Both the position numbers and the translations under genes were made by a program. Shown here piece by piece: positions 3,644-40,560 of a DNA stretch of 64,000 nt. This stretch comes from Streptomyces sp. PR69. Lineage in GTDB: Bacteria; Actinomycetota; Actinomycetes; Streptomycetales; Streptomycetaceae. A model generated the notes under the pieces. It had not been told where the DNA came from, searched no databases, and worked only from the letters and a program-made list of their open reading frames with translations. Position 1 is the stretch's first letter, and each line of letters begins with the position of its first letter. The DNA is taken from assembly GCF_026420845.1 (NCBI RefSeq), contig NZ_JAOWCB010000004.1, positions 248,001 through 312,000 on the forward strand. Reading direction: 5' to 3'.

Positions 3644-3671
3644 AAGGTATGGAACAGCCTTGCGGACGCCG

Positions 3672-8879: not shown

Positions 8880-8883
8880 CCTG

Positions 8884-8954: not shown

Positions 8955-8998
8955 CGGTGTCCGGTGTCTTCCGGCGTGCGCCTCTGGGGCGCTGACCG

Positions 8999-11755
<2,757 letters not shown>

Positions 11756-17769: not shown

Positions 17770-17819
17770 TTCCACGGCCTTGGGGACCAACGGAACAGCC
17801 AGTATCGGTGAGAACGATC
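17770..17819. repeat. Left TSD (TTCCA) and left inverted repeat of the Tn3-family element
   Basis: TTCCA at 17770-17774, then the 45-bp terminal repeat 17775-17819 containing GGGGACCAACGGAACAGCCA. The mate is at 26913-26962. Confidence 0.9.
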
Positions 17820-17920
17820 ATGGTCAGCTCGCTGTGATCCATTAGCACGAGCGATCCGTTGCGTGCGGGTGTTCGCTGAAAGATCCTCGGCTGCTTGATG
17901 CGGGTGGTTACGTCCGTCGT

Positions 17921-21058: not shown

Positions 21059-21119
21059 GCCGTGGACGGCGGTCGGCCCGGCGGTGCCCCACGGACAAGG
21101 GCGGTGCCGGGGCGCCGAT

Positions 21120-21794: not shown

Positions 21795-21832
21795 TCATCT
21801 CCTCTTGACTGCCTGCGACACGAAGTCTAACG

Positions 21833-21861
21833 TACACCGTAAATATTTACGGTGTAAATAC
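21833..21861. promoter_or_regulatory. TetR-type operator, two overlapping copies
   Basis: TACACCGTAAATATTTACGGTGTA (21833-21856) is a perfect 24-bp palindrome in two halves, TACACCGTAAAT and ATTTACGGTGTA. Its right half extends to TTTACGGTGTAAATAC (21846-21861), which recurs as TTTACAGCGTAAATAC at 22945. It lies between the divergent tetR and oxidoreductase start codons. Confidence 0.8.
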
Positions 21862-21873
21862 AATGGGAGTGAT

Positions 21874-22854
21874 ATGAAAGCGATCGTGCAGCGCGGCTAC
21901 GGCGATCCCCGTGAGGTGCTGGAGCTCGGCGAACTCGACCGGCCGGAGCCCGGAGACCACGAGGTCCTGGTGCGCGTCCGCGCCTCGTCGGTGAACCCCG
22001 CAGACTGGATGACACTGGTCGGCCTCCCCCACGTACTGCGGCTCGCGTCCGGTCTGACGCGGCCCAGGCGCCGGGTGCGGGGCAAGGACGTCGCCGGGAT
22101 CGTCGAGGCGGTCGGCCGCAAGGTCACGCGGTGGCAGCCGGGCGCCGAGGTGTTCGGTGAGCTGCCCCACGGCGCCTACGCCGAGTACGCCGTGGCCGCC
22201 GAGGATGCACTGGCGCCCAAGCCGGCCAGCCTCGGCTTCCCGGAGGCGGCGGCCGTTCCGCTCGCGGGAATCACCGCCCTCCAGGGGCTCCGCGATATCG
22301 GCGGCGTCCGGGCCGGCCACCGCGTGCTGGTCAACGGCGCCTCCGGGGGCGTGGGCACGTTCGCCGTGCAGATCGCGAGGTCGCTCGGCGCGCACGTGAC
22401 CGGCGTGTGCAGCACCGGCGGCGTCGACCTGGTGCGCTCGGTTGGCGCCGACGCGGTCGTCGACTACACGCGAGAAGACTTCACGCGGGACGGGCAGCCC
22501 TACGACGTCATCTTCGACCTCGTCGGGAATCACGCCCTGTCGGCGTACCGGCGGGTGCTGCGCCGCGACGGGACCTACGTCGCCGCCAGCGGCATGCCCG
22601 GCGGTGACGTCCTGGGTCCCCTGCCCTACATCCTGCGGGTCGCGCTCCCCTCTGTGCGCGGCGGCCCGAGGATGAAGCCGCTCACCGCGAAGGCGAACCC
22701 CGACGACCTCGCGACGCTCGCGAAGCTGATCGAAGCCGATGAAGTGCGGCCCGTCATCGAGTGCGCCTACGGCTTCCCGGAGATCGCGGCAGCCCTTGCC
22801 AGGCAGGGCGAGGGCCATGCGCGGGGCAAGACCGTGGTAACCATCGCGTCCTGA
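21874..22854 (+). CDS. Zinc-independent MDR family NAD(P)-dependent oxidoreductase (quinone oxidoreductase-like)
   Basis: 326-aa medium-chain dehydrogenase/reductase. MKAIVQRGYGDPREVLELGE and VRASSVNPADWMTLVG form the GroES-like part. The Rossmann fold has VLVNGASGGVGTFAVQIARS (residues about 150-170) for NAD(P)H. The structural and catalytic zinc cysteines of alcohol dehydrogenases are absent, so it is more like NADPH:quinone or enone reductases. The ATG at 21874 is just downstream of the TetR operator. It may detoxify an electrophile or quinone that also induces the neighbouring exporter. Confidence 0.88.
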   Translation: MKAIVQRGYGDPREVLELGELDRPEPGDHEVLVRVRASSVNPADWMTLVGLPHVLRLASGLTRPRRRVRGKDVAGIVEAVGRKVTRWQPGAEVFGELPHGAYAEYAVAAEDALAPKPASLGFPEAAAVPLAGITALQGLRDIGGVRAGHRVLVNGASGGVGTFAVQIARSLGAHVTGVCSTGGVDLVRSVGADAVVDYTREDFTRDGQPYDVIFDLVGNHALSAYRRVLRRDGTYVAASGMPGGDVLGPLPYILRVALPSVRGGPRMKPLTAKANPDDLATLAKLIEADEVRPVIECAYGFPEIAAALARQGEGHARGKTVVTIAS

Positions 22855-22944
22855 GCCCCGCCGAGCCGCCGCCTCCTCGGCACATCAGGAAACACTCAAG
22901 GGGCCGCACGCGGCTCGCCATCCGGGGCGCAGCACGCCCCATTG

Positions 22945-22960
22945 TTTACAGCGTAAATAC
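22945..22960. promoter_or_regulatory. Second TetR-type operator, before the exporter genes
   Basis: TTTACAGCGTAAATAC matches the operator half at 21846-21861 in 13 of 16 positions and keeps the TTTAC...GTAAA symmetry. It lies 57 bp upstream of the ABC ATPase start, so the same TetR probably controls the exporter directly. Confidence 0.7.
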
Positions 22961-23016
22961 GCCTGGTGGATCCCTGTCGGGCGAACGGTCCGGCTCACGA
23001 ACCGAAAGGAAAGGCC

Positions 23017-23985
23017 ATGCCCCCGTACGCGATCCACGCCGAAGGGCTGCGCAAGCGGTACGGCGACACCGTCGCCGTCGACGGTGTCGACCTCGCAGTC
23101 CCGCAGGGCAGCGTCTACGGCTTTCTCGGCCCCAACGGGGCCGGCAAGACCACCACCATCCGGATGCTCGCGACCCTGGTCCGGCCCACCGCAGGACGGG
23201 CACGGATCTTCGGCCGCGACATCGTCGCCGACGCCGACGCGGTACGCGCCCGCATCGGCCTCACCGGCCAGTACGCCTCGGTCGACGACGACCTCACGGG
23301 CAGGGAGAACCTGGTGCTGATGGGCCGGCTGCTCGGTCACCGGCACCGTGCCGCCGCGGAGCGGGCCAGGGAGCTGCTGGCCGCTTTCGGCCTCGAAGCC
23401 GCCGCGCACCGGCGGGTCAAGGGCTACTCGGGCGGTATGCGCCGCCGGCTGGACATCGCCGCGAGCATCGTGGTGACACCCGACCTGCTGTTCCTCGACG
23501 AACCGACCACGGGACTCGACCCGCGAAGCCGCACCCAGGTATGGGACGTCGTACGCGAACTGGCCATGGGCGGCACCACGGTCCTGCTGACCACCCAGTA
23601 CCTGGAAGAGGCCGACCGGCTGGCGGACCGGCTGGCGGTCATCGACCACGGCCGCATCATCGCCGAGGGCACGCCCGCCGAACTCAAGCAGTCCGTCGGC
23701 GCCGGAGTGGTACACGTCCGGCTCAGGGACCCGGCCCGGCGAGACGACGCGGCGCGGATCCTGACCCGGGTGCTGGCCGTGCCGGTCCGCCACGAGGAGG
23801 ACCCGGCGGCCCTGTCGGCCGGTCTGGACGATCCCGCGCGGGCCGGTGCGGCACTGAGCGAGCTCGCGCACGGCGGCATCGAAGTCAGCGACTTCGGCGT
23901 CGGCCGGATCAGCCTCGACGAAGTCTTCCTGGCCCTCACCGGCCACCACGCCACACCCAAGTCCCCGAAGGAGGCCACCGCATGA
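23017..23985 (+). CDS. DrrA family ABC exporter ATPase
   Basis: 322-aa ATP-binding subunit of a daunorubicin-resistance-type exporter. Walker A is [16 protein letters not shown] (near residue 38-50), signature [12 protein letters not shown], Walker [18 protein letters not shown]-loop [11 protein letters not shown]-terminal DrrA domain follows (after residue 225). The ATG at 23017 has GAAAGGA 8 bp upstream. The stop overlaps the permease start as ATGA, so the two subunits are coupled. Cargo of the Tn3-family element. Confidence 0.95.
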
Positions 23986-24824
23986 ACACCGTCCCGGCCC
24001 CACCGCCCACCGACGCCACCACCGCCCCGCTTCGCTCTGCGCTGTCGACCCGAGCACGTCCGGCCCGTCCCAGCGCACCGGCCGCCGCACTCGCCTTCAG
24101 CTGGCGGGCTGTCCTGCGCATCAGGCATGTCCCGGACCAGTTGTTCGATGTGACCGTGTTCCCGCTGATGATGCTGGTGATGTTCACCTACCTGTTCGGC
24201 GGAGCGCTGGCCGGTTCCACCGGCGAGTATCTGCAGTCGGTCCTGCCCGGCATCCTGGTCATGACGGTCACGATGACCACGCAGTCGACCGCGGTCGCGC
24301 TCAACACCGATATCTCCAAAGGGGTGTTCGACCGGTTCCGGTCGCTGCCGATCTGGCGTCCGGCCCCGTTGGTCGGGGCGCTGCTGGCCGATCTGGGCCG
24401 TTACGCGGTCGCGGCCACGATGATCGTGAGCCTCGGCGTGCTGCTGGGGTTCCGTCCCGATGCGGGCCTGTCCGGGGTGCTGGCCGGTGTGGGCCTGGTG
24501 CTGCTGTTCGCCTGGAGCTTGTCGTGGGTCTGGACGAGCCTCGGCCTGCTGGCCCGCAGCCCCGAGTCGGTGATGTTCCTCGGCATACTGGTGACGTTCC
24601 CGATGAGTTTTGTCAGCAACGTCTTCGTCGACCCCGCCACCCTGCCCGGCTGGCTCGAAGCGTTCGTCGACGTCAACCCGATCACGCACCTGGTCACCGC
24701 CGTACGCGGCCTGATGCACGCAGAGCCGGTCACCACCGAGATCGGCTGGGTCCTGACAACCTGCGCCGCTCTGGTCGCCGTGTTCGGCCCCGTCACGATG
24801 CGGCTCTACCGCCGCGAACCGTAA
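23982..24824 (+). CDS. DrrB-like ABC-2 type exporter permease
   Basis: 280-aa membrane subunit of the same exporter, with about six hydrophobic segments (e.g. [20 protein letters not shown], then [20 protein letters not shown]). It belongs to the ABC-2/DrrB family, and the region [20 protein letters not shown] before the last helices is a family hallmark. It overlaps the ATPase gene by 4 bp. Substrate unknown; anthracycline-like or other amphiphilic drugs are typical. Confidence 0.93.
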
Positions 24825-24853
24825 TGCTCACGCTCCCTGCGGTCCGACACGTT

Positions 24854-24887
24854 GTTCGGCCCTCGTCTCAGCGGGCGAGGGCCGAAC
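24854..24887. terminator. Hairpin between permease and DUF2306 gene
   Basis: GTTCGGCCCTCG (24854-24865) pairs perfectly with 24876-24887 around a 10-base loop, 30 bp after the permease stop. It probably ends or attenuates the exporter transcript. Confidence 0.6.
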
Positions 24888-24920
24888 GACGCCATCAGGA
24901 AAGCCAGGAAAAGGCCCCCG

Positions 24921-25592
24921 ATGACCAGTTCCTCCACGCCCCAAAGGTTCGCGCTCGCCGGACTGCTGACGCTCGCCGTCATCCCCTCGCTCGCCGGCGT
25001 CTTCCGCCTCACCGAACTGGTCGGCGGCGCGGACATCACGCCGGAGAACACCCGGTTCTTCGCCTCCCCCGCGCCCGTGGTCGTCCACATCCTCGCCGCC
25101 GTCCCGTTCGGCGTCCTGGGCGCCTTCCAGTTCGTCCCTGCCATCCGCCGCCGGCACCCCGGCCGGCACCGCGCGGCCGGCCGGTTCCTGGTCGTGTGTG
25201 GGCTCGCCGCGGCGCTCTCAGGTCTGTGGATGACCTTGCTCTACCCACGGACAGACAGCGACGGTGACCTCTTGACCGGTATCCGCCTGGTCTTCGGCCT
25301 GGCCATGGCCGCCTCACTCGTCCTGGCCTTCGCCGCAGTCCGACGGCGGGACCTGGCCCGGCACCGCGCATGGATGTTCCGCGGCTACGCGATCGGCATG
25401 GGGGCGGGCACGCAAACACTGCTGTTCATACCCTCGATCGTCGCCCTCGGCCTGCCCGGCGAGCTGGACAAAGCCCTGGTCCACGGCCTCGGCTGGGTGA
25501 TCAACCTCGCCGTGGCCGAGTGGGCCATCCATCGGCGACCATCGGCTGCCGCGCACAAGCCCGAGGATGTCGACCGCATAACGACGGAATGA
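24921..25592 (+). CDS. DUF2306 family membrane protein
   Basis: 223-aa integral membrane protein with six or seven hydrophobic segments (FALAGLLTLAVIPSLAGVFR, VVVHILAAVPFGVLGAFQFV, LVVCGLAAALSGLWMTLLYP). The pattern H-x18-H-R-x3-R (RRRHPGRHRAAGRFLV) and WMFRGYAIGMGAGTQTL fit the DUF2306 family, which has no established function. The ATG at 24921 comes after AGGAAAAGG. It closes the cargo block of the Tn3-family transposon, so it may help tolerance to the exported compound. Confidence 0.82.
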   Translation: MTSSSTPQRFALAGLLTLAVIPSLAGVFRLTELVGGADITPENTRFFASPAPVVVHILAAVPFGVLGAFQFVPAIRRRHPGRHRAAGRFLVVCGLAAALSGLWMTLLYPRTDSDGDLLTGIRLVFGLAMAASLVLAFAAVRRRDLARHRAWMFRGYAIGMGAGTQTLLFIPSIVALGLPGELDKALVHGLGWVINLAVAEWAIHRRPSAAAHKPEDVDRITTE

Positions 25593-25873
25593 GCACTGAG
25601 CGACAATCAGCTCAGAGTGGTCCGCCAACTACTGACAGTCCACCCCGACTGAATCGGCCGGATACTCGAACGTGGGTCGGAAGTTCGATGCCCGGAGCGT
25701 CAAGGCCACGGGTTCAACGCGGCGTTACTCTCACAAACGACCCTTTGCCCGAGCAAGATCGAATACGGGCCGTCGAAGATCGCGAAGACCCTGATCGGTT
25801 CGCAGAACCCGTTCGCACTCAAAAGGGGGAGCAACCCCCTTCTGAGACTTGCATTGTGCGAAAATCCGGGCTC
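25593..25873. other. Gene-free stretch upstream of the resolvase, probable res region
   Basis: 281 bp with no plausible gene. It contains a hairpin AAGGGGG (25823-25829) / CCCCCTT (25835-25841) just before the resolvase gene and several TTCG-containing repeats (25780-25817). In Tn3 elements the resolution site lies next to the resolvase gene, so a res site is expected here; I cannot delimit its three subsites by eye. Confidence 0.45.
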
Positions 25874-26881
25874 ATGACGGACCCTCACGAGCCTTCCCCC
25901 GCCGACTCCTCGGACGCGGACGACGTCGAACGGCACGCCTGCCCGAAGTGTGACGCACAGCCCGGCTCGCCGTGCCGCTCGCGCTCCGGCGCGGTCACCT
26001 CCGCCTACCACACCGGCCGCTTCACCAAGGTGCCCCGGCTCGCGAAGAAACTGCGGGTGCCCACCCCAGCCGACCGCGCCCCCGGCCAGCCGTGGCGGCC
26101 CGGCACCCCGCCCCCCGCTCCCATCGACCCCGACCTGCCGAGCGCGGACATCCGCATCGGATACGCCAGGTGCTCGCACCGCAGCCAGGAACTCCAAACC
26201 CAGATCGACGCGCTCGCCGGACACGGCATCCCCCGGGACAAGATCTTCAGCGAGAAGATCAGCACCCGCATCCGGGTCCGCCCCCAGTTCGAACAGGCCC
26301 TCAAGACAGCCCGGGAGATCAAGGCCCACGCCCCGCACTGCCGGGTGCTCTTCACGGTGTTCGAGATGAAGCGACTGGGCCGGGACGCTGCCGAACTGAC
26401 GGCGCTCGCCGACCACCTGACCGCGCACGGCCTGGTCCTGGAGATGCTCCACGGCCCCCTGGCCGGCATCTACGACCCCAGCGGCCCCGGCAAGCTGCTG
26501 TTCGCGTTCTTCGCCGCGATGGCGGAGACCGAGCGGGAGAACATCCGCGAATCCACCCTCGAAGGGCTCGACACCGCGGCCCGCAAGGGCAAGTACGGCG
26601 GCCGGCCGCCCGTCATCACCGACGACATGCTGCATACCGTGCTCCGCCGCCGCGCGCTCGGCGAGTCCGTCGAGCAGATCCAGCCCGACCTGATCATCCC
26701 CACCGGCAAGCGCAAGGGCCAGAACCCGTCCGTCGCCAGCATTTACCGGGCACTCGCCGAGCACGCTAAGCGCGAGGCGTACCCCGAAGCCGTCGAACAG
26801 GCCCACACCGACTTCGCCGCCCACCAGGCCGGAGAACTCCCCAGCCCGCGCACGGCACAGACCGCCGAACCCGCCCGATGA
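25874..26881 (+). CDS. Serine recombinase (resolvase) with N-terminal zinc ribbon
   Basis: 335-aa serine recombinase, most likely the cointegrate resolvase of the Tn3-family element. Residues about 17-40 form a small zinc motif (CPKCDAQPGSPCRSRSG) seen fused to many Streptomyces resolvases. The catalytic domain begins IRIGYARCSHRSQELQTQID with the nucleophilic serine in YARCS, then VFEMKRLGRDAAELTALADH and FFAAMAETERENIRESTLEG. A Hin-like helix-turn-helix ends the protein (NPSVASIYRALAEH). The frame is open upstream to 25370, but the ATG at 25874 is the first start that leaves the res region free. It ends 31 bp before the right inverted repeat. Confidence 0.9.
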   Translation: MTDPHEPSPADSSDADDVERHACPKCDAQPGSPCRSRSGAVTSAYHTGRFTKVPRLAKKLRVPTPADRAPGQPWRPGTPPPAPIDPDLPSADIRIGYARCSHRSQELQTQIDALAGHGIPRDKIFSEKISTRIRVRPQFEQALKTAREIKAHAPHCRVLFTVFEMKRLGRDAAELTALADHLTAHGLVLEMLHGPLAGIYDPSGPGKLLFAFFAAMAETERENIRESTLEGLDTAARKGKYGGRPPVITDDMLHTVLRRRALGESVEQIQPDLIIPTGKRKGQNPSVASIYRALAEHAKREAYPEAVEQAHTDFAAHQAGELPSPRTAQTAEPAR

Positions 26882-26912
26882 CTGGTGACGAGAGAGCCGC
26901 TCAAGGCGTCAA

Positions 26913-26962
26913 GATCAATCTCACCGATACTGGTTGTTCCGTTGGTCCCCAAGGCCGTTCCA
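26913..26962. repeat. Right inverted repeat and TSD of the Tn3-family element
   Basis: The inverted mate of 17775-17819 occupies 26913-26957; TTCCA follows at 26958-26962, identical to the left duplication. Confidence 0.9.
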
Positions 26963-28668: not shown

Positions 28669-28924
28669 GTCGAACAGGGTGGGCCAGTACCTCAGAACCT
28701 CTCAGCACGCACGAGATCTTCCTTGTCCGGCGGACCGAGCACGGACGCCTCGGGGTCCGGCGCGCCGACCAACAGGTTCTCAGTCTCCGGGCTGGAACTC
28801 CGGTGCCAGCCGCGCGGGTTGACCGCCAACCCGCGGTCCCAGCCCCCAGAATCAGGGCGTCTCACCCGTGAGTTCGTGGTGAAGAACCTTCAGTTTCCCT
28901 GAACTGACGGGCCTCGGCGGCCTT

Positions 28925-29012
28925 GGTACTGGTGCACTCGCGTATTCAACTGTCGCCAGTTCCCCGAGGAGTCCAGCCTGCTGGTGACGGTGTGTGGTCC
29001 CCAGGGGCGTGA
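28925..29012. repeat. Recombinase 3'-end repeat, copy 1
   Basis: First of four related sequences. TACTGGTGCACTCGCGTATT (from 28925) continues nearly identically to copy 2 for 29 bp. The following part codes on the minus strand for the tail APGDHTPSPAGWTPRGTGDS of a recombinase (stop at 28946). The 260 bp between it and the ATPase start hold no gene. Confidence 0.65.
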
Positions 29013-29029
29013 TGTTCTCGCGCCGTACG

Positions 29030-30094
29030 ATGGATGGTGTGACAGTCGAGGTGTACGCCGACCGGTTCCTGCAGAGCGCTTTCGACGCCATGGGCGACGA
29101 CCCGGAACAGATCCTCCATGCAGGAAGGATCGTGGGAGCCGCCAGGCTGGACGCGGCCGACGAACAGGCCGTGGTCTCCCATCTCGTAGTGCGTGGCTGG
29201 GCGAAGCGTGCGGTCAACCAGGCCAACGGCCGTTCTCCCCTCATCCGCTTGACCCGGGCCGGCGTGGCTAAGGCCCGTGAGTTGCGGGCCCACTCGGAGC
29301 CACGAGCCGAACGCGAGGCACATCTGAACAACGTGCTGCCTCACTGGGCGTATAACAACTCCCCGTCGGGAGGCTCGGCGGACTTGCAGAAGTTCGCCGC
29401 GGCCAAGGAGTGGTGGTTCTGCGGCACCGAGGTCACATGGCACGAAGTGGACGCCGCCGTCGCCTACCTGGAAGCCAAGGGCCTTCTTGTGGCCGACCGC
29501 ACCCCCCGGCCCCAACGCATTACGCTGACCGCCGACGGCATCGACTTCGTGCGCTCCAAGCAGACTCTGTGGTTCTTCCTGACCACCCGTCAGCAGCAGC
29601 CCGTCTCAAACGGCACCATCATCGTCGACAGTAATGTCGTGTATGGGCCGGTGCACGACAGTAGCCTGGCCGCCGGAGCAAGCAACGCCCAGACGGTGCG
29701 AGGGAACGTGACCGACCACAGCCAGCACTACCCCCAGGCCCTGCAGCCCAACATCAGCGTCGGTGACATCGGGGCGGGCGCCGCCGTAAGTTTCGGCAGC
29801 GGCCCCGCCTCCGCAGCATCCCGGGGCGGCAGCGCCATCGCTGGAAGCCACAACCAGCAGAACACCGGCCTGGAAGACGCCGACCTGATCTCGATTCTCA
29901 ACCGGCTCCGACAGGATCTGGGCGAGTATCCCGGAGGGAACGCGCTCATAGACGAACTCCAGGCCCAGGCAGCGTCCGAAGAGGACACGCCGGAACTGCG
30001 CAGCTCCATGTGGAGGCTCCGCATCGAACCGTTCGCCACCCGGTTCGGAATCGTGGGTTCGCTCGCCTCGATCGTGTCTCTGCTCCTCGGGTAG
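29030..30094 (+). CDS. Hypothetical protein with winged-helix-like N-terminus and C-terminal membrane segment
   Basis: I do not recognise this 354-aa protein. The first 190 residues contain two winged-helix-like units, each with a SHLVVRGWAKRAVNQ- or YLEAKGLLVADRTPRPQRIT-type strand pair. Residues about 195-290 are a glycine/asparagine/serine-rich stretch with repeating polar turns (NGTIIVDSNVVYGPVHDSSL, NISVGDIGAGAAVSFGSG). This is reminiscent of the linkers before membrane or effector domains in some bacterial signalling proteins. The last 18 residues (RFGIVGSLASIVSLLLG) are hydrophobic and could enter a membrane. The ATG at 29030 is chosen because it lies past the repeat; a GTG at 29039 is also possible. 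It is the first gene of the cassette-like array, next to the ATPase-HNH pair, so a defence role is conceivable but unproven. Confidence 0.6.
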   Translation: MDGVTVEVYADRFLQSAFDAMGDDPEQILHAGRIVGAARLDAADEQAVVSHLVVRGWAKRAVNQANGRSPLIRLTRAGVAKARELRAHSEPRAEREAHLNNVLPHWAYNNSPSGGSADLQKFAAAKEWWFCGTEVTWHEVDAAVAYLEAKGLLVADRTPRPQRITLTADGIDFVRSKQTLWFFLTTRQQQPVSNGTIIVDSNVVYGPVHDSSLAAGASNAQTVRGNVTDHSQHYPQALQPNISVGDIGAGAAVSFGSGPASAASRGGSAIAGSHNQQNTGLEDADLISILNRLRQDLGEYPGGNALIDELQAQAASEEDTPELRSSMWRLRIEPFATRFGIVGSLASIVSLLLG

Positions 30095-30119
30095 CTCCAG
30101 TCGGCTACTTACTAGTTTA

Positions 30120-30985
30120 GACCGTGTCCTATGTGGTGAGTCGGACGAGTCGTTTGTAGCAGCAGAGGGTGGCGGCGAGGCCGAGGAAGGCCAGGTAGTT
30201 GCGGGGGTGGCGTTCATAGCGGTGGCTGAGGCGGCGGTAGCCGGTCAGCCATGACATGGTGCGTTCGATGACCCAACGTCGGCGCCCCAACCGTTCGCTG
30301 GACTCGACCCCCTTGCGGGCGATGCGGACGCCGATGTGCTTGCCCCATAGCCATTTGCGCAGGTGGGGGACGTCATATGCCTTGTCGGCGTGGAGGCGCT
30401 GGGGTTTGAAGTAGCGGCCGCGGCGGGGGTCGTGTCTCGTTTGGTTGCCCTCGACCATCGGCTTCAACGCGAGGCTGTCGTGGGTGTTGGCCGCGGAGAG
30501 GCCGACGAGGAGGGGCAGTCCGTTCGCGTCCGACAGAACGTGCATCTTGGAACCCGGCTTGCCCCGGTCCACGGGGCTCGGGCCTGTGAGTTCGCCCCCC
30601 TTTTAGCCCTGACGTGCGCGGAGTCGAGCACGGCCCGTGAGAGGTCGAGCAGGCCGGCGTCGTCCAGGCGGTGCAGGATCTCCTCGTGGAGCCGACCCCA
30701 GACCCCGGCTCGCGACCAGAGCAGGAACCTGCGGTGGGCCGTCGACTTCGATATCCCGAAGCACGGCGGCAAGGCCCGCCAGGCACACCCGCTGACCAGG
30801 ACGTAGATGATCGCGGCGAACAGCGTCTCATCAGGCGTGTCCTGCGTCCCACCGCCCTGCGGCCGCACCTTCGACGGCGGGATCAGCGGCTCCGCGATCT
30901 CCCACAGCCCGTCCGGAACAATCCAACTCCACGTACCCCGCCCCATGCCGAGCCCAACGCCCGACTCACCACATAGGACACGGTC
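30120..30985. mobile_element. IS5-family insertion sequence, 866 bp
   Basis: Perfect 25-bp inverted repeats at 30120-30144 (GACCGTGTCCTATGTGGTGA...) and 30961-30985, flanked by TTA on both sides (30117-30119 and 30986-30988). A 3-bp TNA duplication is typical of the IS427/IS1031 subgroup of IS5. It landed exactly at the edge of repeat copy 2. Both repeats and the transposase look intact, which suggests a recent insertion. Confidence 0.92.
30129..30946 (-). CDS. IS5-family transposase, two frames joined by programmed -1 frameshift
   Basis: The first frame starts at 30946 (MGRGTWSWIVPDGLWEIAEP) and runs through an N-terminal DUF4096-like domain to VRAKRGANS. The second frame supplies the DDE part (VDRGKPGSKMHVLSDANGLP, then LHADKAYDVPHLRKWLW, then RRRWVIERTMSWLTGYRRLS, the D-E end). 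The frames meet at a slippery A4G6 run near 30598-30607; slipping back one base reads GCT AAA AGG GGG GGC GAA CTC and joins them in phase. Such -1 shifts are normal for IS427-type elements, so this is likely functional and not a mutation. Total about 270 aa. Confidence 0.88.
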
Positions 30986-31137
30986 TTACTGGTGAGCTCG
31001 CGTATTCAACTGTCGCGTGTTGTCGGTGCTCACGAGCTTGGCAGTGACGTTCCGTGATCTCCAGGGGTGTATCGGCTCCATGTCCCGCCGGTCTCGTTGA
31101 GGAGACGGGTGTGGTCTTGTCGTGGGAGCCGAGGGCG
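30986..31137. repeat. Recombinase 3'-end repeat, copy 2
   Basis: Starts ACTGGTGAGCTCGCGTATTC, matching copy 1 with two differences over 29 bp. Then come CTCCAGGGGTGTATCGGCTC and a run (31089-31134) identical to the 3' part of the recombinase gene at 32816-32861. On the minus strand it encodes TRLLNETGGTWSRYTPGDHG, a recombinase tail with the tyrosine. 31138-31227 is a short leader with no gene. Confidence 0.75.
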
Positions 31138-31227
31138 ATCGTTGGCCCGGGCGTAGGCATCCGGGAGGTGGGTGTCGCTGGGCGGGTGTGAAATGGGGGC
31201 AGGCGGCTCCATTGAGGAGGCATCGGG

Positions 31228-31800
31228 ATGGAAATCGACCCATGGGCGTGGGGCTGGGTGTCCATCGGCACGCTGTCCGCAGCATTCGCCACGGTGGTGC
31301 TGGCCGCCGTGACCTTTCACTTGGTCCGGCGTACGAAGGACATTGCGAAGGCCAGTGAAGCGGATCTGAAGGCGCAGTGGCGTCCCGTTCTTGTGCCCAC
31401 TCTGGAAGACCCCGAGCTGGCCCACGATTCGGATGCGAAGCTGCTGAGCCTGGTGGTACGCATCCGTAACGTCGGGCGCGGCCCGGCGCTCTATGTGCGG
31501 GCCCAGGTGGAGACGCCTCCCGCCAATGACCCCGGCGGGGTGAGCCCGCAGCATTGGTCGCCTGGGACGCTCGCGCCTGACGACGCCCAGGAGCTGGTCT
31601 TCCGGCTGCCCAAGGTTCCCGAGTTCGCTCAGCTCCTGCTGGACTACAGGGATCTGGCAGACAATACCCACGGCACCTCGGTGACCATCACCTTCCACGA
31701 CGGCAGGCCCTACTTCTATGACGTGCACCTCGTGGAGCACAAGGTCACGGTTCTCGGTGACGCCGTCTACCCGCAGGACGGCCTGAGGTCCGTCTTGTGA
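31228..31800 (+). CDS. Hypothetical membrane-anchored protein
   Basis: 190 aa, not recognised. ATG at 31228 with an excellent GAGGAGG 8 bp upstream. Residues 9-32 form one transmembrane helix (WVSIGTLSAAFATVVLAAVT), followed by a short basic/alpha segment (RRTKDIAKASEADLKAQWRP). Then a beta-rich soluble domain follows (LLSLVVRIRNVGRGPALYVR, TSVTITFHDGRPYFYDVHLV). The layout resembles small single-pass proteins of unknown function found beside defence genes in actinomycetes. It is alone between repeat copies 2 and 3, i.e. one gene per repeat interval. Confidence 0.65.
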   Translation: MEIDPWAWGWVSIGTLSAAFATVVLAAVTFHLVRRTKDIAKASEADLKAQWRPVLVPTLEDPELAHDSDAKLLSLVVRIRNVGRGPALYVRAQVETPPANDPGGVSPQHWSPGTLAPDDAQELVFRLPKVPEFAQLLLDYRDLADNTHGTSVTITFHDGRPYFYDVHLVEHKVTVLGDAVYPQDGLRSVL

Positions 31801-31814
31801 TCGCAGAGCGCAAC

Positions 31815-32124
31815 TTCAGCTCCGCGTATTGTCAGTTTCCCGAGGGGTCCAGCCCGATGGTGACCGTAGATGATCTCCAGCGGCGTACCGGCTCCAGGCG
31901 CCTCCGGCTTGGGTAGCCAGCTTGGCGGTGGTGACTTAGTGGTATCTGAGGGCGTCCGCGACGACGTGTTCGGGCATCTCCAGGACGTGCTCGCGGATCG
32001 CAGAGGTCCGGCCGACGGTGGTGGGGATGCCGAGGTCGTTGACCAGGGCCACGAGCGTTTCGGGGTGCATCGGCTGTCCGGCCCGGCGTCCAGGGAACAC
32101 GGGCGCTCGCCGGGGGGAGAGTGA
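31815..32124 (-). pseudogene. Recombinase 3'-end repeat copy 3 plus a decayed recombinase C-terminus
   Basis: Read on the minus strand, 32124 down to about 31820 encodes the end of a paralogue of the zinc-finger recombinase at 32751. It has EMPEHVVADALRYH, then an in-frame TAA, then VTTAKLATQAGGAWSRYAAG and DHLRSPSGW. The + strand 31950-32090 aligns with 32864-33010 over most of its length. No start or N-terminal part remains. The downstream stretch (TCCGCGTATTGTCAGTTTCC) matches the non-coding part of copies 1 and 2. It fixes the correct reading frame of this protein family's tail. Confidence 0.7.
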
Positions 32125-32143
32125 TCTGCTGGACGGGCAGGCG

Positions 32144-32650
32144 TCAGTCGCTGTCCGGTTCGGGTAGCGTCCGCGCTAGATCATCTTCTACGTCAAGGCC
32201 GAAGGACGCCGCGATGGTGGCCACCTGGAGGCCAACACCAGCGCGCAGTTCGCCGAGGGCCTCGCCGAACCAGTAGTCCTGCATCCTCCAGTGGTGTTCC
32301 CGGAAGAGGTGGCGGGAGGCAGTCGCCGCGTCAGCGTGGTTCTCAGTGGCACCGACCCGGTTCAGGAAGCTCACGCAGTAGCGGCGCATGATCCGTAGCG
32401 GCTCGTGCAATTCGGCGCGGATACCGCCCTCGCCGATCACGGTGGTCAGGAAGTCGCGGATCTCCAGGACCGAGGTGACACACTGTTCGGGCACCTCGTT
32501 GGTATACGTCGAGAACAGCACGCGGCGGGCCTCGACGAAGGTGAGGACCTTGCGGGCGACGGCGACATCGACCGTCGGTGGGTTCCAGGACACACCAAAA
32601 ATGGGCGTACTAATCCCGTTCACGCGCGCGATGATCTCGGCGAACTTCAC
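32144..32650 (-). CDS. Hypothetical protein, DUF6650-like
   Basis: 168 aa from the GTG at 32650 ([20 protein letters not shown]); the frame is open upstream to an ATG-type start at 32680. [30 protein letters not shown] and the helical rest ([40 protein letters not shown]) recall a family of unknown function I know as DUF6650, which often occurs next to mobile or defence genes. It is soluble, with no catalytic motif visible. It lies between repeat copies 3 and 4, opposite in direction to the other cassette genes. Family assignment is from memory. Confidence 0.6.
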
Positions 32651-32719
32651 CCTGCGATGTTCGCACGGCGAGGTAGGCAACGGAGCCCTGAAGCGCCCCT
32701 GTACTCGCAGGAGCTTCTG

Positions 32720-32865
32720 GCGAGGTTCCGTACTCAGCCGTCGTCAGGGCTCAGAGGAACCCAGCCTGCTGGTGATCGCCTATGTTCCCCGGGGGCGTAT
32801 CGGCTCCAGGTTCCGCCGGTCTCGTTGAGGAGACGGGTGTGGTCTTGTCGTGGGAGCCGAGAGCG
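32720..32865. repeat. Recombinase 3'-end repeat, copy 4 (in the recombinase gene)
   Basis: This copy contains the end of the near-complete recombinase gene and about 30 bp beyond. CCCGGGGGCGTATCGGCTCC and the run 32816-32861 match copy 2. CCAGCCTGCTGGTGA matches copy 1 and copy 3. It is the most complete copy and marks the array edge next to the recombinase operon. Confidence 0.7.
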
Positions 32866-34271
32866 TCCGCGACGACGGGAGCCGGCATTTCAAGGAGTTG
32901 TTGTCGGATGGCGGCGCCGCGGGCGGCGGCCACCGGGACACCGATCTCGTTGAGGAGTGCGGACAGGTGGTCAGGGCGGAAGGGCTGGCCGGCCCGGCGG
33001 CCGGGGAACAGCCAGGGGGACGCCTGGTTGGTGGCGGTGTTCATGTGGTCGCGGTCGGCGATGTAGTCCCGCAGCAGGGAGGCGGCGGGTTCGGGGACGG
33101 GTGAGGCCGGTTCCCCGAGCCGCAGGAGTACGGCCTCTCCGTCGTGGATCACATCGTCGACGGTGAGCCGGACGATCCGGGTGAGGGGTTGGGCATAGAG
33201 GAGCACGATGACGCCGGCGACGCGGAGGTTCGCCGGTGTGTCCGGGTCGGTCAGCAGCCGGCCGAGGGCGTCCAGGCGCTCGTCTTCGCTCAGCGCGGCT
33301 CGCCGGGTGGTCTTCATCGAGGGTATGGAGAGCGAGCGTCGGCAGTGGCGGCTCTGCATGGCCCAGTTGAGGAAGGCCCGAAGGCAATTGCGGCCGTGCT
33401 CGCTGTTCTCGGCCCACCAGGCGTCGACGTCGGTCTGACCGCAGGAGGCCAGGGCGGTGTTCCGCCCGGCGAGCCAGGCGAGGAAGGCGGTTGCGTGTTT
33501 GATCTGCTCGGCGGCGAAGCGGCGGATGCTGGGGGTGATGTGGCCGCGGTCGGCTCGTGCACGCAGTCGGGGAAGGACGCGCCAGGTCGCGAAGAGCCTG
33601 ATCGTCTTCGCGTGCTCGGGGTCAGCGATATCGGCCAGATGACCGGGCAGCCAGCGCTGGAAGGAACAGATGTACTTGTCGACGGCGGGCAGGACCCCAC
33701 TCGCCATCAGCAGTTCTTCCAGGTGAGCGGCCGACCGCCAGGGCTGGAGTTCGTGGAAGGCGTCGTGCGTCAGCGGGATCTGGCCGAGGCCGAGCTGCCG
33801 GAGCCGCTCGGAGGCGTTTCCCGGTTGGTCTCGGCGCATGGCCAGCCAGGCCAGCCCGCTGCTGGGCTTGTCCATCGCCACCAGCAGGTCGAACAGCGGT
33901 GTCAGTTCCGGGCGGACGCGGCCGGTGCCGTCGTCCAGCAGAGTGGTGAGCCGATCGGCGAGCGTGCAGCGTTCGCAGAGCCGCCCACGCAGGAGCTTGC
34001 CTTCGAAGCCGCAGCGTGAGCAGTCGAAGGTCTGGGAGAAACCGGCGCAGGTCGCGCAGATCGCGGCGCCGTCGCCGGGGCGGAGGCCGGGAAGTGCCCG
34101 GTCCTGGCCGCATCCGGGGCAGGTGCCCCGTGTCCGGACCGCGCGGTCCGAGCAGGTCCGGCAGACGTATCCGTCCGGCCAGCGGGCGGCGAACCAACCA
34201 TGACGTTCGCAGCGGGCGCAGGTGCGCTTGTGCCAGCGTTCGCACTCTTCAGGGGTGTAGGCGGGGCTCAT
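32735..34271 (-). pseudogene. Zinc-finger tyrosine recombinase, frameshifted before its catalytic tyrosine
   Basis: As the frame stands it is a 506-aa protein (stop at 32751). The N-terminus has four CxxC-type zinc motifs (CARCERHGWFAARWPDGYVC, CPGCGQDRALPGLRPGDGAA, CSRCGFEGKLLRGRLCERC). The middle is helical and the C-terminal half is a tyrosine-recombinase fold (LSEDERLDALGRLLTDPDTP, then RVAGVIVLLYAQPLTRIVRL with the first arginine). After VVADALGSHDKTT the frame reads PVSSTRPAEPG; one base further the expected tail RLLNETGGTWSRYAPG appears and ends at 32735. A one-base deletion near 32836-32841 therefore removes the probable nucleophile tyrosine from this frame. The same deletion is present in repeat copy 2. 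Last gene of an operon with an XRE regulator and an integrase. Confidence 0.75.
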
Positions 34272-34603
34272 GCGTCGGGCAGGATGCGGGCCGCGCGGGG
34301 CCGCAGCTTGGCGACGTTCGCGGACAGGGCCGGAAGGTCGCCGGTGGCGGTCTTGCGGACCCCTGCGTTCTCGGCGGTGGTGGCTACCAGGTCGGCCGGG
34401 GTGCAGGCGAGGATGTCGCAGAGCGCGGCCATGACCTGCAACGACAGCCGTTCCGGGGTGCCGGAGACCAGACGGTGGACCTGGGAGGCGGACAGGTCGA
34501 TCCCGCGTTCACGCAGCAGCGGGACCAACTCGGTGGCTGTGAAGATCTGATGCTGGGCCATCACCTCGCGCAGCCGCCAGGTGTAGCCGACCTTACGCTT
34601 CAT
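34268..34603 (-). CDS. XRE family helix-turn-helix regulator
   Basis: 111-aa DNA-binding protein of the XRE (Cro/CI) type: LREVMAQHQIFTATELVPLL, then IDLSASQVHRLVSGTPERLS as helix-turn-helix, LQVMAALCDILACTPADLVA as dimer helices. ATGA overlaps link it to the integrase upstream and the recombinase downstream. Palindromic sites near the integrase start are its likely operators, so it probably represses the recombinase operon. Confidence 0.9.
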   Translation of the reverse strand: MKRKVGYTWRLREVMAQHQIFTATELVPLLRERGIDLSASQVHRLVSGTPERLSLQVMAALCDILACTPADLVATTAENAGVRKTATGDLPALSANVAKLRPRAARILPDA

Positions 34604-35751
34604 GCGTTCCTCCCGTTCCGGGTCTGAAGGGCCGCGGCGATGGTGTCGTCCAGGTGCCGGCGCAGGGTTCGGGTGCGGAAGTCCGACGAGACACAGGTGT
34701 AGATGGAGGTGGTGCTGGCGTGCTCGTGACCGACCTGTTCCTGGACGAAGCGGGGGTCCCAGCCGTCCTCGATCAGGTGGGTGACGTAGGACCTTCGCAG
34801 CGAGTGGAAGTCCAGTCCGTCGTCCAGGCCCAGGGCCTCGCGGTATGCCTTGAAACGGGAGTTGATCCGCTGGCAGCCGATCCGCAGACCCCGTTCGGAC
34901 GGCCAGGCGGCCGGATTGCCGTCAGCCCCGAAGTGGGGCCGGACCTCGGTGAACCACTCGTCGAGGACATCCGGGGTCCAGTCGAACACGGTCAGCACCC
35001 CGCGGCGCTTGGGCGGCGAGCCCTTCTTCGCCTTGCCGAACCGCACCTGGCATCGGCCGTACTCGCCGAACTCGGCCCCGTGCGGGTTCCGGCCGAAGTC
35101 GGCCGCGTCGAGCATCCGTGTCTCGTTGCGCCGGGTCCCGTAGGCGTAGGCCGTCTTGAACACAGTGGCGTCCCGAAAAGCTGGCAGCCAGCCCTTGCGG
35201 CCCAGCGAGCGGATGCGCGCGACCTCGTCGTCGCAGTAGGCGAAGAAGGCGTGCAGCTCAGCCTTGGTGAACGCCCGCTTCTTCGGGTCGGACTCGTTGT
35301 CCTGGACATGCACTGCGGTGTTCCACTCGTGCACCACCTGGACCGGGTGAGTGCCGAAGCGTTCCTCGCAGGTGGCGGTCCACTCATAGAGGGGGTCGGT
35401 CACGAAGTGGCAGAAGGACCGGACGGCCTCGGAGTACGAACGGATCGTCGAGCGCTTCAGATCGCGCAGTGAGCGCAGGTCCCCGAGCCACTCGTCGACC
35501 ATCGCCGGCGTCCAGTTCCATGGGTAGGTGTTCACGTACGCGGCGAACGCCTTCACCGCGTTCTCCCGTCCCTCCACGGTCGTCCGGGCCAGATTCCGCG
35601 CCAGCTGCTGATTGGCGAACCCCGTCAGCATCGCAGTGAAGACCTGTTCCTCCGGCCGCAGCAACGCGACCCCGTCCACCAGATGCAGCCTCGCCGCACC
35701 CGGTATCGACCCGTTGAACCCCACCGATCCACCACTCTCCGTGACTCGCAT
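34600..35751 (-). CDS. Tyrosine-type site-specific recombinase/integrase
   Basis: 383-aa phage-type integrase. The SAM-like core-binding domain is at residues 30-130 (FANQQLARNLARTTVEGREN). The catalytic domain has the first arginine in AYAYGTRRNETRMLDAADFG, then HSLRRSYVTHLIEDG (HxxR), then VGHEHASTTSIYT with histidine and the nucleophile tyrosine. All catalytic residues are present. It starts at 35751 inside a palindromic operator. Together with the XRE protein and the zinc-finger recombinase it forms a three-gene recombination operon, comparable in plan to recombinase-trio elements. It is therefore the only recombinase of the array with a complete active site. Confidence 0.92.
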   Translation of the reverse strand: MRVTESGGSVGFNGSIPGAARLHLVDGVALLRPEEQVFTAMLTGFANQQLARNLARTTVEGRENAVKAFAAYVNTYPWNWTPAMVDEWLGDLRSLRDLKRSTIRSYSEAVRSFCHFVTDPLYEWTATCEERFGTHPVQVVHEWNTAVHVQDNESDPKKRAFTKAELHAFFAYCDDEVARIRSLGRKGWLPAFRDATVFKTAYAYGTRRNETRMLDAADFGRNPHGAEFGEYGRCQVRFGKAKKGSPPKRRGVLTVFDWTPDVLDEWFTEVRPHFGADGNPAAWPSERGLRIGCQRINSRFKAYREALGLDDGLDFHSLRRSYVTHLIEDGWDPRFVQEQVGHEHASTTSIYTCVSSDFRTRTLRRHLDDTIAAALQTRNGRNA

Positions 35752-35783
35752 CAGATGCGAGGAAATCGCATCCTATGCGAGTC
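35743..35783. promoter_or_regulatory. Palindromic operators at the integrase start
   Basis: TCGCATCAGATGCGA (35746-35760) and TCGCATCCTATGCGA (35766-35780) are adjacent near-perfect palindromes; GACTCGCAT/ATGCGAGTC also form an outer inverted pair. The first overlaps the integrase ATG (35749-35751), which suits autorepression by the XRE regulator. Confidence 0.75.
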
Positions 35784-35928
35784 GCCAGGAAACCAGCAGT
35801 TCAGCCCCCTGCGTGAGTGGCAGCAAGGCTCCGCGTGCCGCTACTGTCACCGGTAGCTCGGGCACCCAACGTGACCACCCCGCAGCATGGTTGATGCCCT
35901 CCTTCGGAGCGATTCGCATACCGTCGCC

Positions 35929-35948
35929 AATTCGCATCTGATGCAATT
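35929..35948. promoter_or_regulatory. Third operator copy upstream of the recombinase operon
   Basis: AATTCGCATCTGATGCAATT is nearly palindromic and shares the core GCATCWGATGC with the operators at 35748-35758. A further half site, TTCGCAT, is at 35913-35919. The rest of the gap 35752-36082 shows no gene. Confidence 0.65.
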
Positions 35949-36082
35949 GACGGTGATTGGATCAATGGAACCGTGATTGACGCTGAGATTGATCTCTAAA
36001 TCGGCGGATACACCCCTGCGGGACGTGGACGCATGCGGTCGGGCCGGCGTCGGGAAGGAGTGGTTCCTGACCCGGGCCCGGG

Positions 36083-37177
36083 TCACCACCTCTGGGGCTG
36101 CACAAATCCGCCGAAGGGCCGACGCCACTCGTTGGTGGCGTCGCGCCTCTTGAGTACTTCCTCGACGACCGGACCCGCCTCTTTATCGAATGCGCCGTCC
36201 CGGAGCACCACGCGGTGACAGACCATGCCGCTGCTGTCCTCCTCAAAGTCCTTCCACTTCCCGCTGTCGTACCGCTTGGAGGGCCGGTGTACGTCGAGGA
36301 GCTGGAAGGCTTCGAGTGGCTTGTGCGTCTCGTAGGTGTCGCGGCCGACGCCGTAGAAGCCGTGGCGCACGTTGCTCAGCACGTACCCGACTGTCATTGG
36401 GGCTCTGCCCTCGGGAGCCACGTGCATGGCGTCAAACTTCATGACGTCGAACCACATCAGCAGGGCCGCGATCTCGCTGTTGGTGAGCACGTGGACCCAG
36501 CCGTTGGTAAAGAACCCGACGGGGATCTCAAGGAAGCGCTCGTCATCGGCCGGCACGGTGTACGGGATGCTCGCGGCGCCGGTGTCCTTGCTCTTTCCGT
36601 TCTCGCACAGGAGCAGAACGCCACGGCGGACCTGCCCCTTAATCCCGGTTGCCGACTTGAGTAGCCCCATCTCCTCAAGTGCCTTCATCGCTTGGGCGAT
36701 CTGCCTGATCTTGTTCGTGCGGACCGAGGACGCCTGGACGCCGGGCCCGGCGTACTTGGCGACGGTCGCCACCAAGCCTTCCCAGGAATCGGTCTTCTGG
36801 GCGTCCGGCTCGATCGGGTACGGCTGGGGCCACTCCTTGCCGACCGCCGCCTCGCACTGCGCCGCAAACAGCATCAGGAGGTACAGCTTCAGGGTGAGCC
36901 CTTTCGGCGTGATCATCTGTGCGGAGAGCGGGCGCTCGGCCCGAGGCAGCGGCTTCCTCTCGGTCTCGACCGTCCCACCGAACTTCTCCAGCCTCACGAA
37001 GGACCGCCGCACGCGCACAACCTGCGGCTTCTTGCCTCGCGCGTGGATCTCGCGGGCCTTCTTGATCGCATCGGGGAGCTCGCCCCCCATCAACGCCTGT
37101 AGCTGGTCCTTGCGGATCTCGACCTTGCCATCCCGCTCCTGCGCCACAGCTGCCCTCAAAAAGTCTGACGGTTTCAC
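36083..37177 (-). CDS. Hypothetical protein with winged-helix-like segment
   Basis: 364 aa from a GTG at 37177; not recognised. A basic N-terminal region (KKAREIHARGKKPQVVRVRR) precedes a helical block LTLKLYLLMLFAAQCEAAVG. A winged-helix-like segment follows (VRTNKIRQIAQAMKALEEMG with LLKSATGIKGQVRRGVLLL), and later EIPVGFFTNGWVHVLTNSEI with AALLMWFDVMKFDAM. This combination recalls plasmid replication or partition-type initiators, but I cannot assign a family. An inverted repeat lies just upstream, so it may be self-regulated. It is the last substantial gene before the right end of the Tn7-like element. Confidence 0.6.
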   Translation of the reverse strand: MKPSDFLRAAVAQERDGKVEIRKDQLQALMGGELPDAIKKAREIHARGKKPQVVRVRRSFVRLEKFGGTVETERKPLPRAERPLSAQMITPKGLTLKLYLLMLFAAQCEAAVGKEWPQPYPIEPDAQKTDSWEGLVATVAKYAGPGVQASSVRTNKIRQIAQAMKALEEMGLLKSATGIKGQVRRGVLLLCENGKSKDTGAASIPYTVPADDERFLEIPVGFFTNGWVHVLTNSEIAALLMWFDVMKFDAMHVAPEGRAPMTVGYVLSNVRHGFYGVGRDTYETHKPLEAFQLLDVHRPSKRYDSGKWKDFEEDSSGMVCHRVVLRDGAFDKEAGPVVEEVLKRRDATNEWRRPFGGFVQPQRW

Positions 37178-40204: not shown

Positions 40205-40227
40205 CCGCTCGCGCACTGCCGTACGCT

Positions 40228-40425
40228 GGCCGGTGCAGTTGGTTCGCCCCGTCCGCCAGGCGGGAGCGTCGTAAGAGGGAACCCGGTGGGAATCCGGGAC
40301 TGCCCCGCAGCGGTGAGCGGGAACGACCGCCGTCATACGCACTGGAAGCCGAGGGCTTCTGGGAAGCGACGGCCAGTAGGCGCCTGACGAAGGTCAGGTG
40401 TGCCCGCGAGTCCGAAGACCTGCCA
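40228..40425 (+). ncRNA. Cobalamin (AdoCbl) riboswitch
   Basis: The conserved blocks are in order. AGGGAACCCGGTGGGAATCC (from 40275) and GACTGCCCCGCAGCGGTGAG give the B12-box core region. CACTGG and TCTGGGAAGC follow, then GGCCAGTAGG (near 40371), and CCCGCGAGTCCGAAGACCTG (40403-40422) gives the 3' block. This aptamer binds adenosylcobalamin and normally lowers expression of genes for B12 synthesis, uptake or B12-independent isozymes. The next gene in the same direction, 136 bp away, is a thioesterase, an unusual target. 39936-40227 otherwise holds the hairpin and integrase stub above. Confidence 0.93.
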
Positions 40426-40560
40426 CAGCCCGTGCCCCACCGGGTGCGGCCACACCGGACCTCGAGGGCGGGTCGGCGGCGGCAGGGGTGATGTGGACCG
40501 CCCCGTCCTTCGCGCGCATCCGGCCATCGAGGTCGTCGAGAACTCGCGAAGGAGAGTTCC

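What the first reader, a model, noticed from the sequence alone, without database searches (positions are those of the whole stretch)
28925..35783. Integron-like gene array: four repeats made of a recombinase 3' end, with single genes between
Copies at 28925, 30986, 31815 and 32720 share the tail-coding DNA of a zinc-finger tyrosine recombinase plus downstream sequence. All have the same orientation and each interval holds one unrelated small gene (winged-helix-like protein, membrane-anchored protein, DUF6650-like protein). The recombinase operon with its regulator lies at one end. This suggests repeated insertion at the 3' end of the recombinase gene, collecting genes one by one, beside a defence pair. 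I know of no described system with exactly this plan.
Basis: partly seen in the sequence, partly recalled or inferred. Interest (0 to 1): 0.9.

Follow-up and report, generated by a model that had tools for sequence, protein, structure and literature searches.

The report
Single-gene cassette arrays in Streptomyces
Streptomyces genomes carry short runs of unrelated single genes that each end in the same DNA site found at the end of a recombinase operon, and the same gene unit sits beside different operons in different species, so this is likely a gene-swapping cassette system built differently from integrons.

Summary
The four same-direction repeats are real. They are copies of a ~36-bp site, GAACTsGCGACAGTTGAATACGcGAGCyCACCAGTA, with pieces of the 3' end of gene B, a predicted tyrosine recombinase whose stop codon lies inside the site. 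In Streptomyces loci fetched mostly for holding the repeat, operon A-H-B is followed by this site, usually one ORF, and a second site; 23 of 73 loci hold sites and no operon gene. Of 36 operon pairs at least 90% identical, 1 shares the first cassette, whereas one cassette is 98% identical beside operons 70% identical. Examined units end abruptly at CACCAGTA|. In Streptomyces sp. TRM49041 the window's locus differs in blocks ending at sites. Arrays sit inside the terminal repeat of Tn3-family transposons; 2 of 5 tested keep 5-bp duplications outside. Best reading: cassettes likely moved by a two-recombinase system. It fails two integron tests (integrase family, site folding). Movement itself is not shown. 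The window's B is frameshifted and two of its sites carry recombinase remnants, so this copy is probably inactive. No defence enrichment was seen in a small test.

The parts
34600..35751 (-). Gene A: tyrosine recombinase (383 aa)
   Evidence: PF00589 E 2.7e-17; XerD, XerC-like, XerA and IntI4 chains match by sequence
34268..34603 (-). Gene H: small Cro/C1-type HTH protein, overlaps A and B by a few bases
   Evidence: PF13443 E 6.5e-17; present in the operons compared
32751..34271 (-). Gene B: zinc-ribbon protein, predicted tyrosine recombinase; frameshifted after about residue 478 in this copy, so the conserved Tyr493 region is lost
   Evidence: alignment of 17 B proteins; the 50 listed fold matches of a relative's low-confidence model are tyrosine recombinases
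32715..32860 (-). R4: site at the 3' end of B (attI-like position), core degenerate
32144..32680 (-). Cassette gene, DUF6650 (178 aa)
   Evidence: PF20355 E 4e-12
31803..32030 (-). R3: decayed site with a B 3' fragment of another lineage (79% nt to L122-type B, 57% aa to the window's B); ends approximate
31228..31800 (+). Cassette gene, membrane-anchored protein (190 aa), no family
   Evidence: in 392 genomes the listed DNA matches to this stretch lie in its sites (at most 2 candidates scored per genome)
30987..31130 (-). R2: well-kept core (30987-31021) with a B fragment sharing the window B's lesion
30106..30986 (-). IS5-family insertion next to R2
   Evidence: transposase ORFs 30129-30946, 30132-30572 matched NF033580; ends read out
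28927..30105 (-). Cassette unit with the 366-aa gene (28994-30094, +) and R1; also present in Streptomyces sp. TRM49041 (96.4%)
28927..29012 (-). R1: minimal site, no long B coding part; core and arm 28927-28961
28918..28926 (-). CCAAGGCCG, outer tip of the Tn3-type terminal inverted repeat, directly after R1
   Evidence: same 9 bp at both tips of the Tn3 transposon at 17775-26957; position
35921..35938 (-). Core-like sequence at the left end of the A-H-B unit
35959..35995 (-). Inner part of a Tn3-type terminal inverted repeat, left border of the array

Best explanation
The array is likely a set of single-gene cassettes that a two-recombinase operon (A and B, with the small DNA-binding protein H) would insert and exchange at a ~36-bp site that overlaps the stop codon of gene B and also ends the cassettes. 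Shown by sequence: in the pairs examined, a unit runs from just after one CACCAGTA to the next; the A-H-B operon starts with the same core and ends with the site; the same unit occurs beside different operons and alone; where it could be seen, the first border is the inner terminal inverted repeat of a Tn3-family transposon and the last border the transposon's outer 9-bp tip. Inferred: A and B act together as the recombinase, H regulates them, units move as circles by recombination between sites, and the Tn3 transposon carries the array between replicons. Not shown: excision, circles, integration, strand chemistry. In the window the system is probably no longer active by itself, because B is frameshifted and R3 and R4 are degenerate.
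For: (1) Site specificity: a position matrix of 74 sites has about 36 conserved positions; 0 of 148 reversed control strands score above 12 bits, the highest -1.4. Repeat found in 150 of 392 genomes of the window's genus at E<=1e-3, at most 2 candidates scored per genome, and in 75 plasmid records. (2) Layout: of 24 A-H-B operons, 22 have a same-strand site within 3 kb downstream and 0 of 24 one upstream in the stretch held (most loci were fetched for holding the repeat). (3) Independence: 26 operons with a first cassette, 325 pairs; 36 pairs have operons at least 90% identical, 1 of 36 shares the cassette; 4 pairs share a cassette, one of them 98% identical beside operons 70% identical over the aligned part. 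(4) Sharp borders: in 4 shared-cassette pairs and the TRM49041/window pair identity falls from 90-98% to 45-54% at CACCAGTA| on the right; on the left, where the outside is another copy of the site, from 88-98% inside to 79-81% outside in the 4 pairs. (5) Sites without operon genes in 23 of 73 loci. (6) Strain comparison at this locus: flanks 98% and 99% identical, contents differ, borders at sites. (7) Varied cargo: 88 ORFs of at least 60 aa in 53 intervals form 71 clusters; 12 of 20 scanned match Pfam: two methyltransferases, GNAT, SDR, NUDIX, RusA, APH, glyoxalase, aminoglycoside adenylyltransferase-like, DUF1330, DUF6228, S41 peptidase. (8) Docking: inner Tn3 repeat at the left of 16 of 24 operons; Tn3 transposase start directly beside that repeat in L035, L087, L090, L122, L131; 5-bp duplications outside the array-bearing transposon in L126 (GAGGG) and L079 (GTGAG), 2 of 5 tested.
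Against: No excision or integration was observed. R2 and R3 in the window and the second sites of L034 and L079 carry B fragments, which fits nested recombinase elements and decay. On plasmid L209, outside the 24, sites lie upstream of the operon. Among the four operon pairs that share a cassette only L035/L088 is clearly discordant; L084/L087 (86 vs 86%), L042/L217 (96 vs 92%) and L082/L098 (88 vs 80%) are less so, and the L088 operon lacks most of A. Left borders are less clear because the outside is itself a homologous site; cassette X has a degenerate arm there, and in the window the left border of the 366-aa unit is disturbed by the IS (53% outside). B has no sequence match in PDB and only a weak ribbon match in Pfam, and no fold match reached E 0.001. 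3 of 5 array-bearing transposons tested show no duplication, and the L079 opposite end was accepted on a weak motif score. ORF choice was heuristic.
Confidence: 0.7

Rival explanations
1. Each A-H-B plus one cargo plus right end is a small transposon-like island of the Tn554/SE/GInt type, and arrays are tandem insertions whose recombinase genes later decayed; single genes are non-autonomous relics, not captured cassettes.
For: Two tandem A-H-B operons in Rhodococcus rhodochrous plasmid pNit; B fragments at R2, R3; operon at the left end with cargo after the last stop codon of the operon is also the GInt plan (passages).
Against: 35 of 36 nearly identical operon pairs carry different first cassettes; most second sites listed start at 8-64 of the site model, so they lack the B coding part beyond it; 23 of 73 loci have sites and no operon gene.
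Confidence: 0.2
2. The Tn3-family transposase moves the units: the arrays are mini-transposons using the Tn3 terminal repeat, and the tyrosine recombinases are passengers.
For: Left border is the inner Tn3 repeat and the right border its tip; 5-bp duplications in L126 and L079.
Against: Borders inside arrays are the CACCAGTA site, not Tn3 repeats; the duplications lie outside transposon plus array, so they only show that the array is inside the transposon; a Tn3 transposase match is listed in 17 of the 116 loci (stretches of up to about 20 kb, the window 64 kb).
Confidence: 0.06
3. Homologous recombination between repeated B 3' ends, without a dedicated reaction, shuffles the genes.
For: The repeats are homologous over up to 230 bp in some copies; TRM49041 shows a junction from the left flank into the middle of a B remnant, which looks like an illegitimate deletion (my reading).
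Against: Right borders fall at CACCAGTA| against unrelated flanks, where there is nothing to recombine with; many second sites share only part of the model.
Confidence: 0.04

Closest known systems
Integrons (IntI, attI, attC cassettes; CALIN arrays)
   Same: Tyrosine recombinase gene next to the entry site, single-gene cassettes each with a site, arrays with and without the recombinase, varied cargo
   Different: Two recombinases plus HTH in one operon, A below the IntI cut-off and B unmatched; site conserved in sequence and, in the 4 sites folded, not folding better than shuffles; site lies in the recombinase stop codon; the operon is itself a unit; docks in Tn3 tips. [quoted passage not shown]
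Tn554, SE and GInt elements (multi-tyrosine-recombinase islands)
   Same: Operon of recombinases plus a small protein at the left end, cargo after it, site-specific target
   Different: GInt has three recombinases and one cargo region of 2.5-70 kb; the passages read describe no arrays of single-gene units ending in copies of the element's end; Tn554 itself is recalled apart from its mention there
PAISt of Streptomyces turgidiscabies
   Same: Modular excision by one integrase between direct repeats, called a mobile gene collector in the passages read (PMC4057263)
   Different: One integrase, an 8-bp palindrome at the 3' end of bacA, two modules of 105 and 569 kb, no single-gene units in the passages read
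Tn3-family transposons
   Same: The docking element: transposase, resolvase, terminal repeats, 5-bp duplication
   Different: Its transposase does not explain the borders between cassettes

Membership tests
Integron | IntI-family integrase | tested here: not met
   Gene A scores 42.3 against a cut-off of 265 for TIGR02249; B has no NCBIfam match
Integron | attC sites that fold as single-stranded hairpins | tested here: not met
   4 sites, both strands, 8 folds: z-scores -0.87 to 0.95
Integron | Arrays of single-gene cassettes each ending in a recombination-type site | tested here: met
   (sequence evidence only)
Integron | Integrase-mediated excision and insertion of circles | not testable with these tools
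   needs PCR for circles or an assay
Tn554/SE/GInt-type elements | Operon of two or more tyrosine recombinases plus a small protein at one end | tested here: met
   A, H, B in one overlapping operon; B's assignment rests on motifs and weak fold matches
Tn554/SE/GInt-type elements | GInt: three recombinases; SE: Tfp and Srap homologues | tested here: inconclusive
   Two recombinase-like genes and one HTH gene are present; homology to Tfp or Srap was not searched
RIT elements | Three adjacent tyrosine recombinases | tested here: not met
   (definition recalled, with RitA-C named in the table passage)
Tn3 family (docking element, window 17775-26957) | Tn3 transposase, terminal inverted repeats, 5-bp duplication | tested here: met
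   PF01526 E 8.5e-126; TTCCA on both sides

The most novel reading that the evidence does not exclude
A second gene-cassette system, separate from integrons: a two-recombinase operon in Streptomyces and relatives captures and shuffles single genes at a site built into its own stop codon, and anchors the arrays inside the tips of Tn3-family transposons, which spread them.
Probability: 0.55. Interest if true: 0.92.

Novelty: new variant of a known kind. Interest (0 to 1): 0.84.

Why it matters
Integrons are the one well-known way in which bacteria collect single genes as cassettes (recalled), and a large survey found no complete one in Actinobacteria (PMC9024848, passages). A comparable system in the main antibiotic-producing genus, with cargo such as methyltransferases, NUDIX, GNAT and aminoglycoside-modifying-type enzymes, would show that cassette capture arose more than once and would give a list of candidate captured genes to study. 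The link to Tn3 transposon tips parallels the link of class 1 integrons to Tn402 (recalled) and is directly testable.

Tried and rejected
Considered and rejected: insertion point at GATCAC inside B (suggested by L034; the other junctions examined lie at the CACCAGTA end); the 45-bp outer motif as an end of the A-H-B element itself (it is the Tn3 terminal repeat); three copies of one array in TRM49041 as transposition (the contigs are overlapping and identical); defence enrichment (8 cargo proteins, 7 of them without a Pfam hit and 1 not scanned with Pfam, plus 3 of the window); attC-like folding (4 sites). Window cassettes elsewhere: the listed DNA matches in 392 genomes to the stretch with the two middle cassettes lie in its sites, and the 366-aa gene had 2 weak partial matches besides its own; both searches scored at most 2 candidates per genome, so weaker cassette matches may be hidden. 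Core in IMG/VR: 0 stretches. tRNA in the window: none; the one RNA family match is far away. Sister plasmids NBC_00162 and NBC_01546 carry the same cassette, so they were not informative. Literature: 9 searches answered in PMC open papers only, no preprints; in the listings, several of them cut (15 of 23, 15 of 232, 10 of 52, 12 of 20 papers shown), I saw no Streptomyces cassette system of this plan. Seen as passages: PMC5385486 (outline too), PMC10214605, PMC9024848, PMC4057263; everything else as listing only.

Dropped before the counts were loci that repeat a contig already held or overlap another; the sister plasmid locus L137 was also left out, and L136. A script count of 39 loci covers loci with a Tn3 transposase or the motif; with transposase rows alone it is 17. 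In one search L034/L079 share 201 nt, a B remnant, and were not counted as sharing a cassette.
Full report
Observation. The four repeats lie at 28927, 30987, about 31803 and 32715, all on the minus strand. The operon on the same strand is A (tyrosine recombinase, PF00589 E 2.7e-17), H (HTH, PF13443 E 6.5e-17) and B, which has only a weak zinc-ribbon match in Pfam. B of intact relatives mostly ends ...GGTWSRYAPGDH..GDS and stops; the window's B leaves that frame near residue 478. In an alignment of 17 B proteins six CxxC pairs, an Arg at 366, Arg457, His475 and Tyr493 are conserved or nearly so; calling them the recombinase catalytic set is my inference. A model of a relative's B is of low confidence (mean pLDDT 58.5); of 94 Foldseek matches with E up to 10 the 50 listed are tyrosine recombinases, best E 2.9e-3, none below 0.001.

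The site. Profile searches of 73 loci of the window's genus (13 from the B search and 60 picked from the repeat search) give a site with left arm, core GAACTsGCGACAGTTGAATACG and right arm CGAGCyCACCAGTA. About 36 positions are highly conserved; 0 of 148 reversed control strands came near the threshold. The TGA of intact B genes is inside the core. A related core, GAATACGCGACACCTCAACATGCGAGCTCACCAGT, is found near the more distant B lineages (L042, L131, L134; 90 hits including both kinds, 0 in the reversed control). The repeat is in 150 of 392 genomes (at most 2 candidates scored per genome) and 75 of 72,556 plasmid records; the exact core is in 49 stretches of GTDB genomes, four of them overlapping contigs of one strain, mostly Streptomyces, with Embleya, Actinacidiphila, Microtetraspora and one metagenome bin.

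Layout. In 24 operons a site was scored at the B end in 20, a further same-strand site within 3 kb downstream in 22, and none upstream in the stretch held; 3 opposite-strand sites occur in these loci. Most of these loci were fetched because they hold the repeat, so 22 of 24 is biased upward, and some stretches end close upstream. Of 39 intervals up to 1.7 kb, 32 show one ORF of at least 50 aa, 6 show two or three and 1 shows none; in 28 of the 38 with an ORF the longest is antisense to the site. ORFs were chosen by a GC3 heuristic. 23 of 73 loci have sites and no A, H or B match within the stretch. On plasmid L209, not among the 24, a methyltransferase gene with sites on both sides lies upstream of A-H-B, so the operon is not always first.

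Independence of cassette and operon. Among 26 operons with a first cassette, 36 of 325 pairs have operons at least 90% identical and 1 of these 36 shares the cassette (L042/L217). Four pairs share a cassette: L035/L088 (98% beside operons 70% identical over the aligned part), L042/L217 (96 vs 92), L082/L098 (88 vs 80), L084/L087 (86 vs 86). Further shared units occur with and without operons. Junctions: to the right, identity drops from 90-98% to 45-54% at CACCAGTA| in the five pairs examined; the unrelated baseline over 300 nt is 49%, maximum 55%, in 40 random pairs. To the left, where the outside is another copy of the site, it goes from 79-81% outside to 88-98% inside in four pairs; in the fifth, TRM49041 and window, the outside is 53% because the window has an IS there.

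Strain comparison. Streptomyces sp. TRM49041 (contigs L148, L173, L178, L141, overlapping and identical) has the window's flanks: 98.1% over 1,884 nt through the gene at 36083-37177 and 99.1% over 3,173 nt from window position 16361 downwards. In the 12.1 kb compared it has between them a different B remnant joined at CACCAGTA|GCCGACTGG to the 366-aa cassette (96.4%, with R1), then other sequence, and no match to the operon beyond the site-bearing B end, the DUF6650 and membrane-protein cassettes, the IS5 and the defence genes. Its far border starts at a type-2 core. L123 and L134 likewise become alike (97.8% over 3.5 kb) at a type-2 core.

Docking place. In most operons with a readable left end the unit begins with a sequence like CGCCGCCAATTGCATCGGATGCGAACTCGCGACAG, which repeats the core in the same direction. 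Just outside is a 45-bp motif that also occurs alone, often followed by CCrAGGCCG. It is the terminal inverted repeat of Tn3-family transposons: in the window one runs from 17775 to 26957 with transposase (PF01526), a resolvase near the far end (PF00239), CGGCCTTGG...CCAAGGCCG tips and a TTCCA duplication on both sides. Arrays sit between the inner repeat (...GTTCC) and the outer 9-bp tip. In L126 and L079 the 5-bp duplications GAGGG and GTGAG lie outside transposon plus array; in L090, L122 and L076 none was seen. The motif profile was built partly from these loci, so the count of 16 of 24 operons with it at the left border is not independent; the transposase genes starting beside it in L035, L087, L090, L122 and L131 are. 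Transposase matches are listed in 17 of 116 loci.

The window copy. R1 is a minimal site. R2 has a good core but a B fragment that shares a 30-nt identical stretch, lesion included, with the window's B end. R3 has a B fragment of another lineage and no good core. R4, at the end of B, is degenerate. An IS5-family element sits beside R2. So this array mixes cassettes with remnants of at least two recombinase units, and is probably inactive without a helper. The Tn3 transposon splits a PDC-M01A/B defence pair; neither gene is a cassette.

Reading. The evidence supports units that move independently of the operon and end at a defined site; that A and B do this is inferred from their family, their fixed place and the overlap of site and gene. 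It works like an integron but fails two defining tests for one (integrase family, site folding). It shares an operon-at-the-end plan with Tn554, SE and GInt elements (passages). I file it as a new variant of known recombinase elements; the bolder reading, a second cassette system, stays open.

Noticed in passing
window 17775-26957: Tn3-family transposon of 9,183 bp with TetR regulator, oxidoreductase-like and ABC transporter-like genes and a serine resolvase, TTCCA duplication, inserted between PDC-M01A and PDC-M01B defence genes.
   Followed up: partly
window 40222-40441: Cobalamin riboswitch (RF00174, 88.4 bits).
   Followed up: no
L216 (Rhodococcus rhodochrous pNit), 3460-9459: Two A-H-B operons in direct tandem.
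   Followed up: partly
L215 (Mycolicibacterium chubuense pMYCCH.01): An A-H-B-like operon followed by ThiF-family and multiubiquitin genes, a ubiquitin-like cargo.
   Followed up: no
   Followed up: no
L146, L149 (Microtetraspora), L159 (a bin labelled Acidobacteria): The same core outside Streptomycetaceae, with an empty-looking Tn3 repeat in L149.
   Followed up: no
window 36083-37177: 364-aa protein without family match next to the array's Tn3 repeat, 97.5% identical in TRM49041.
   Followed up: partly
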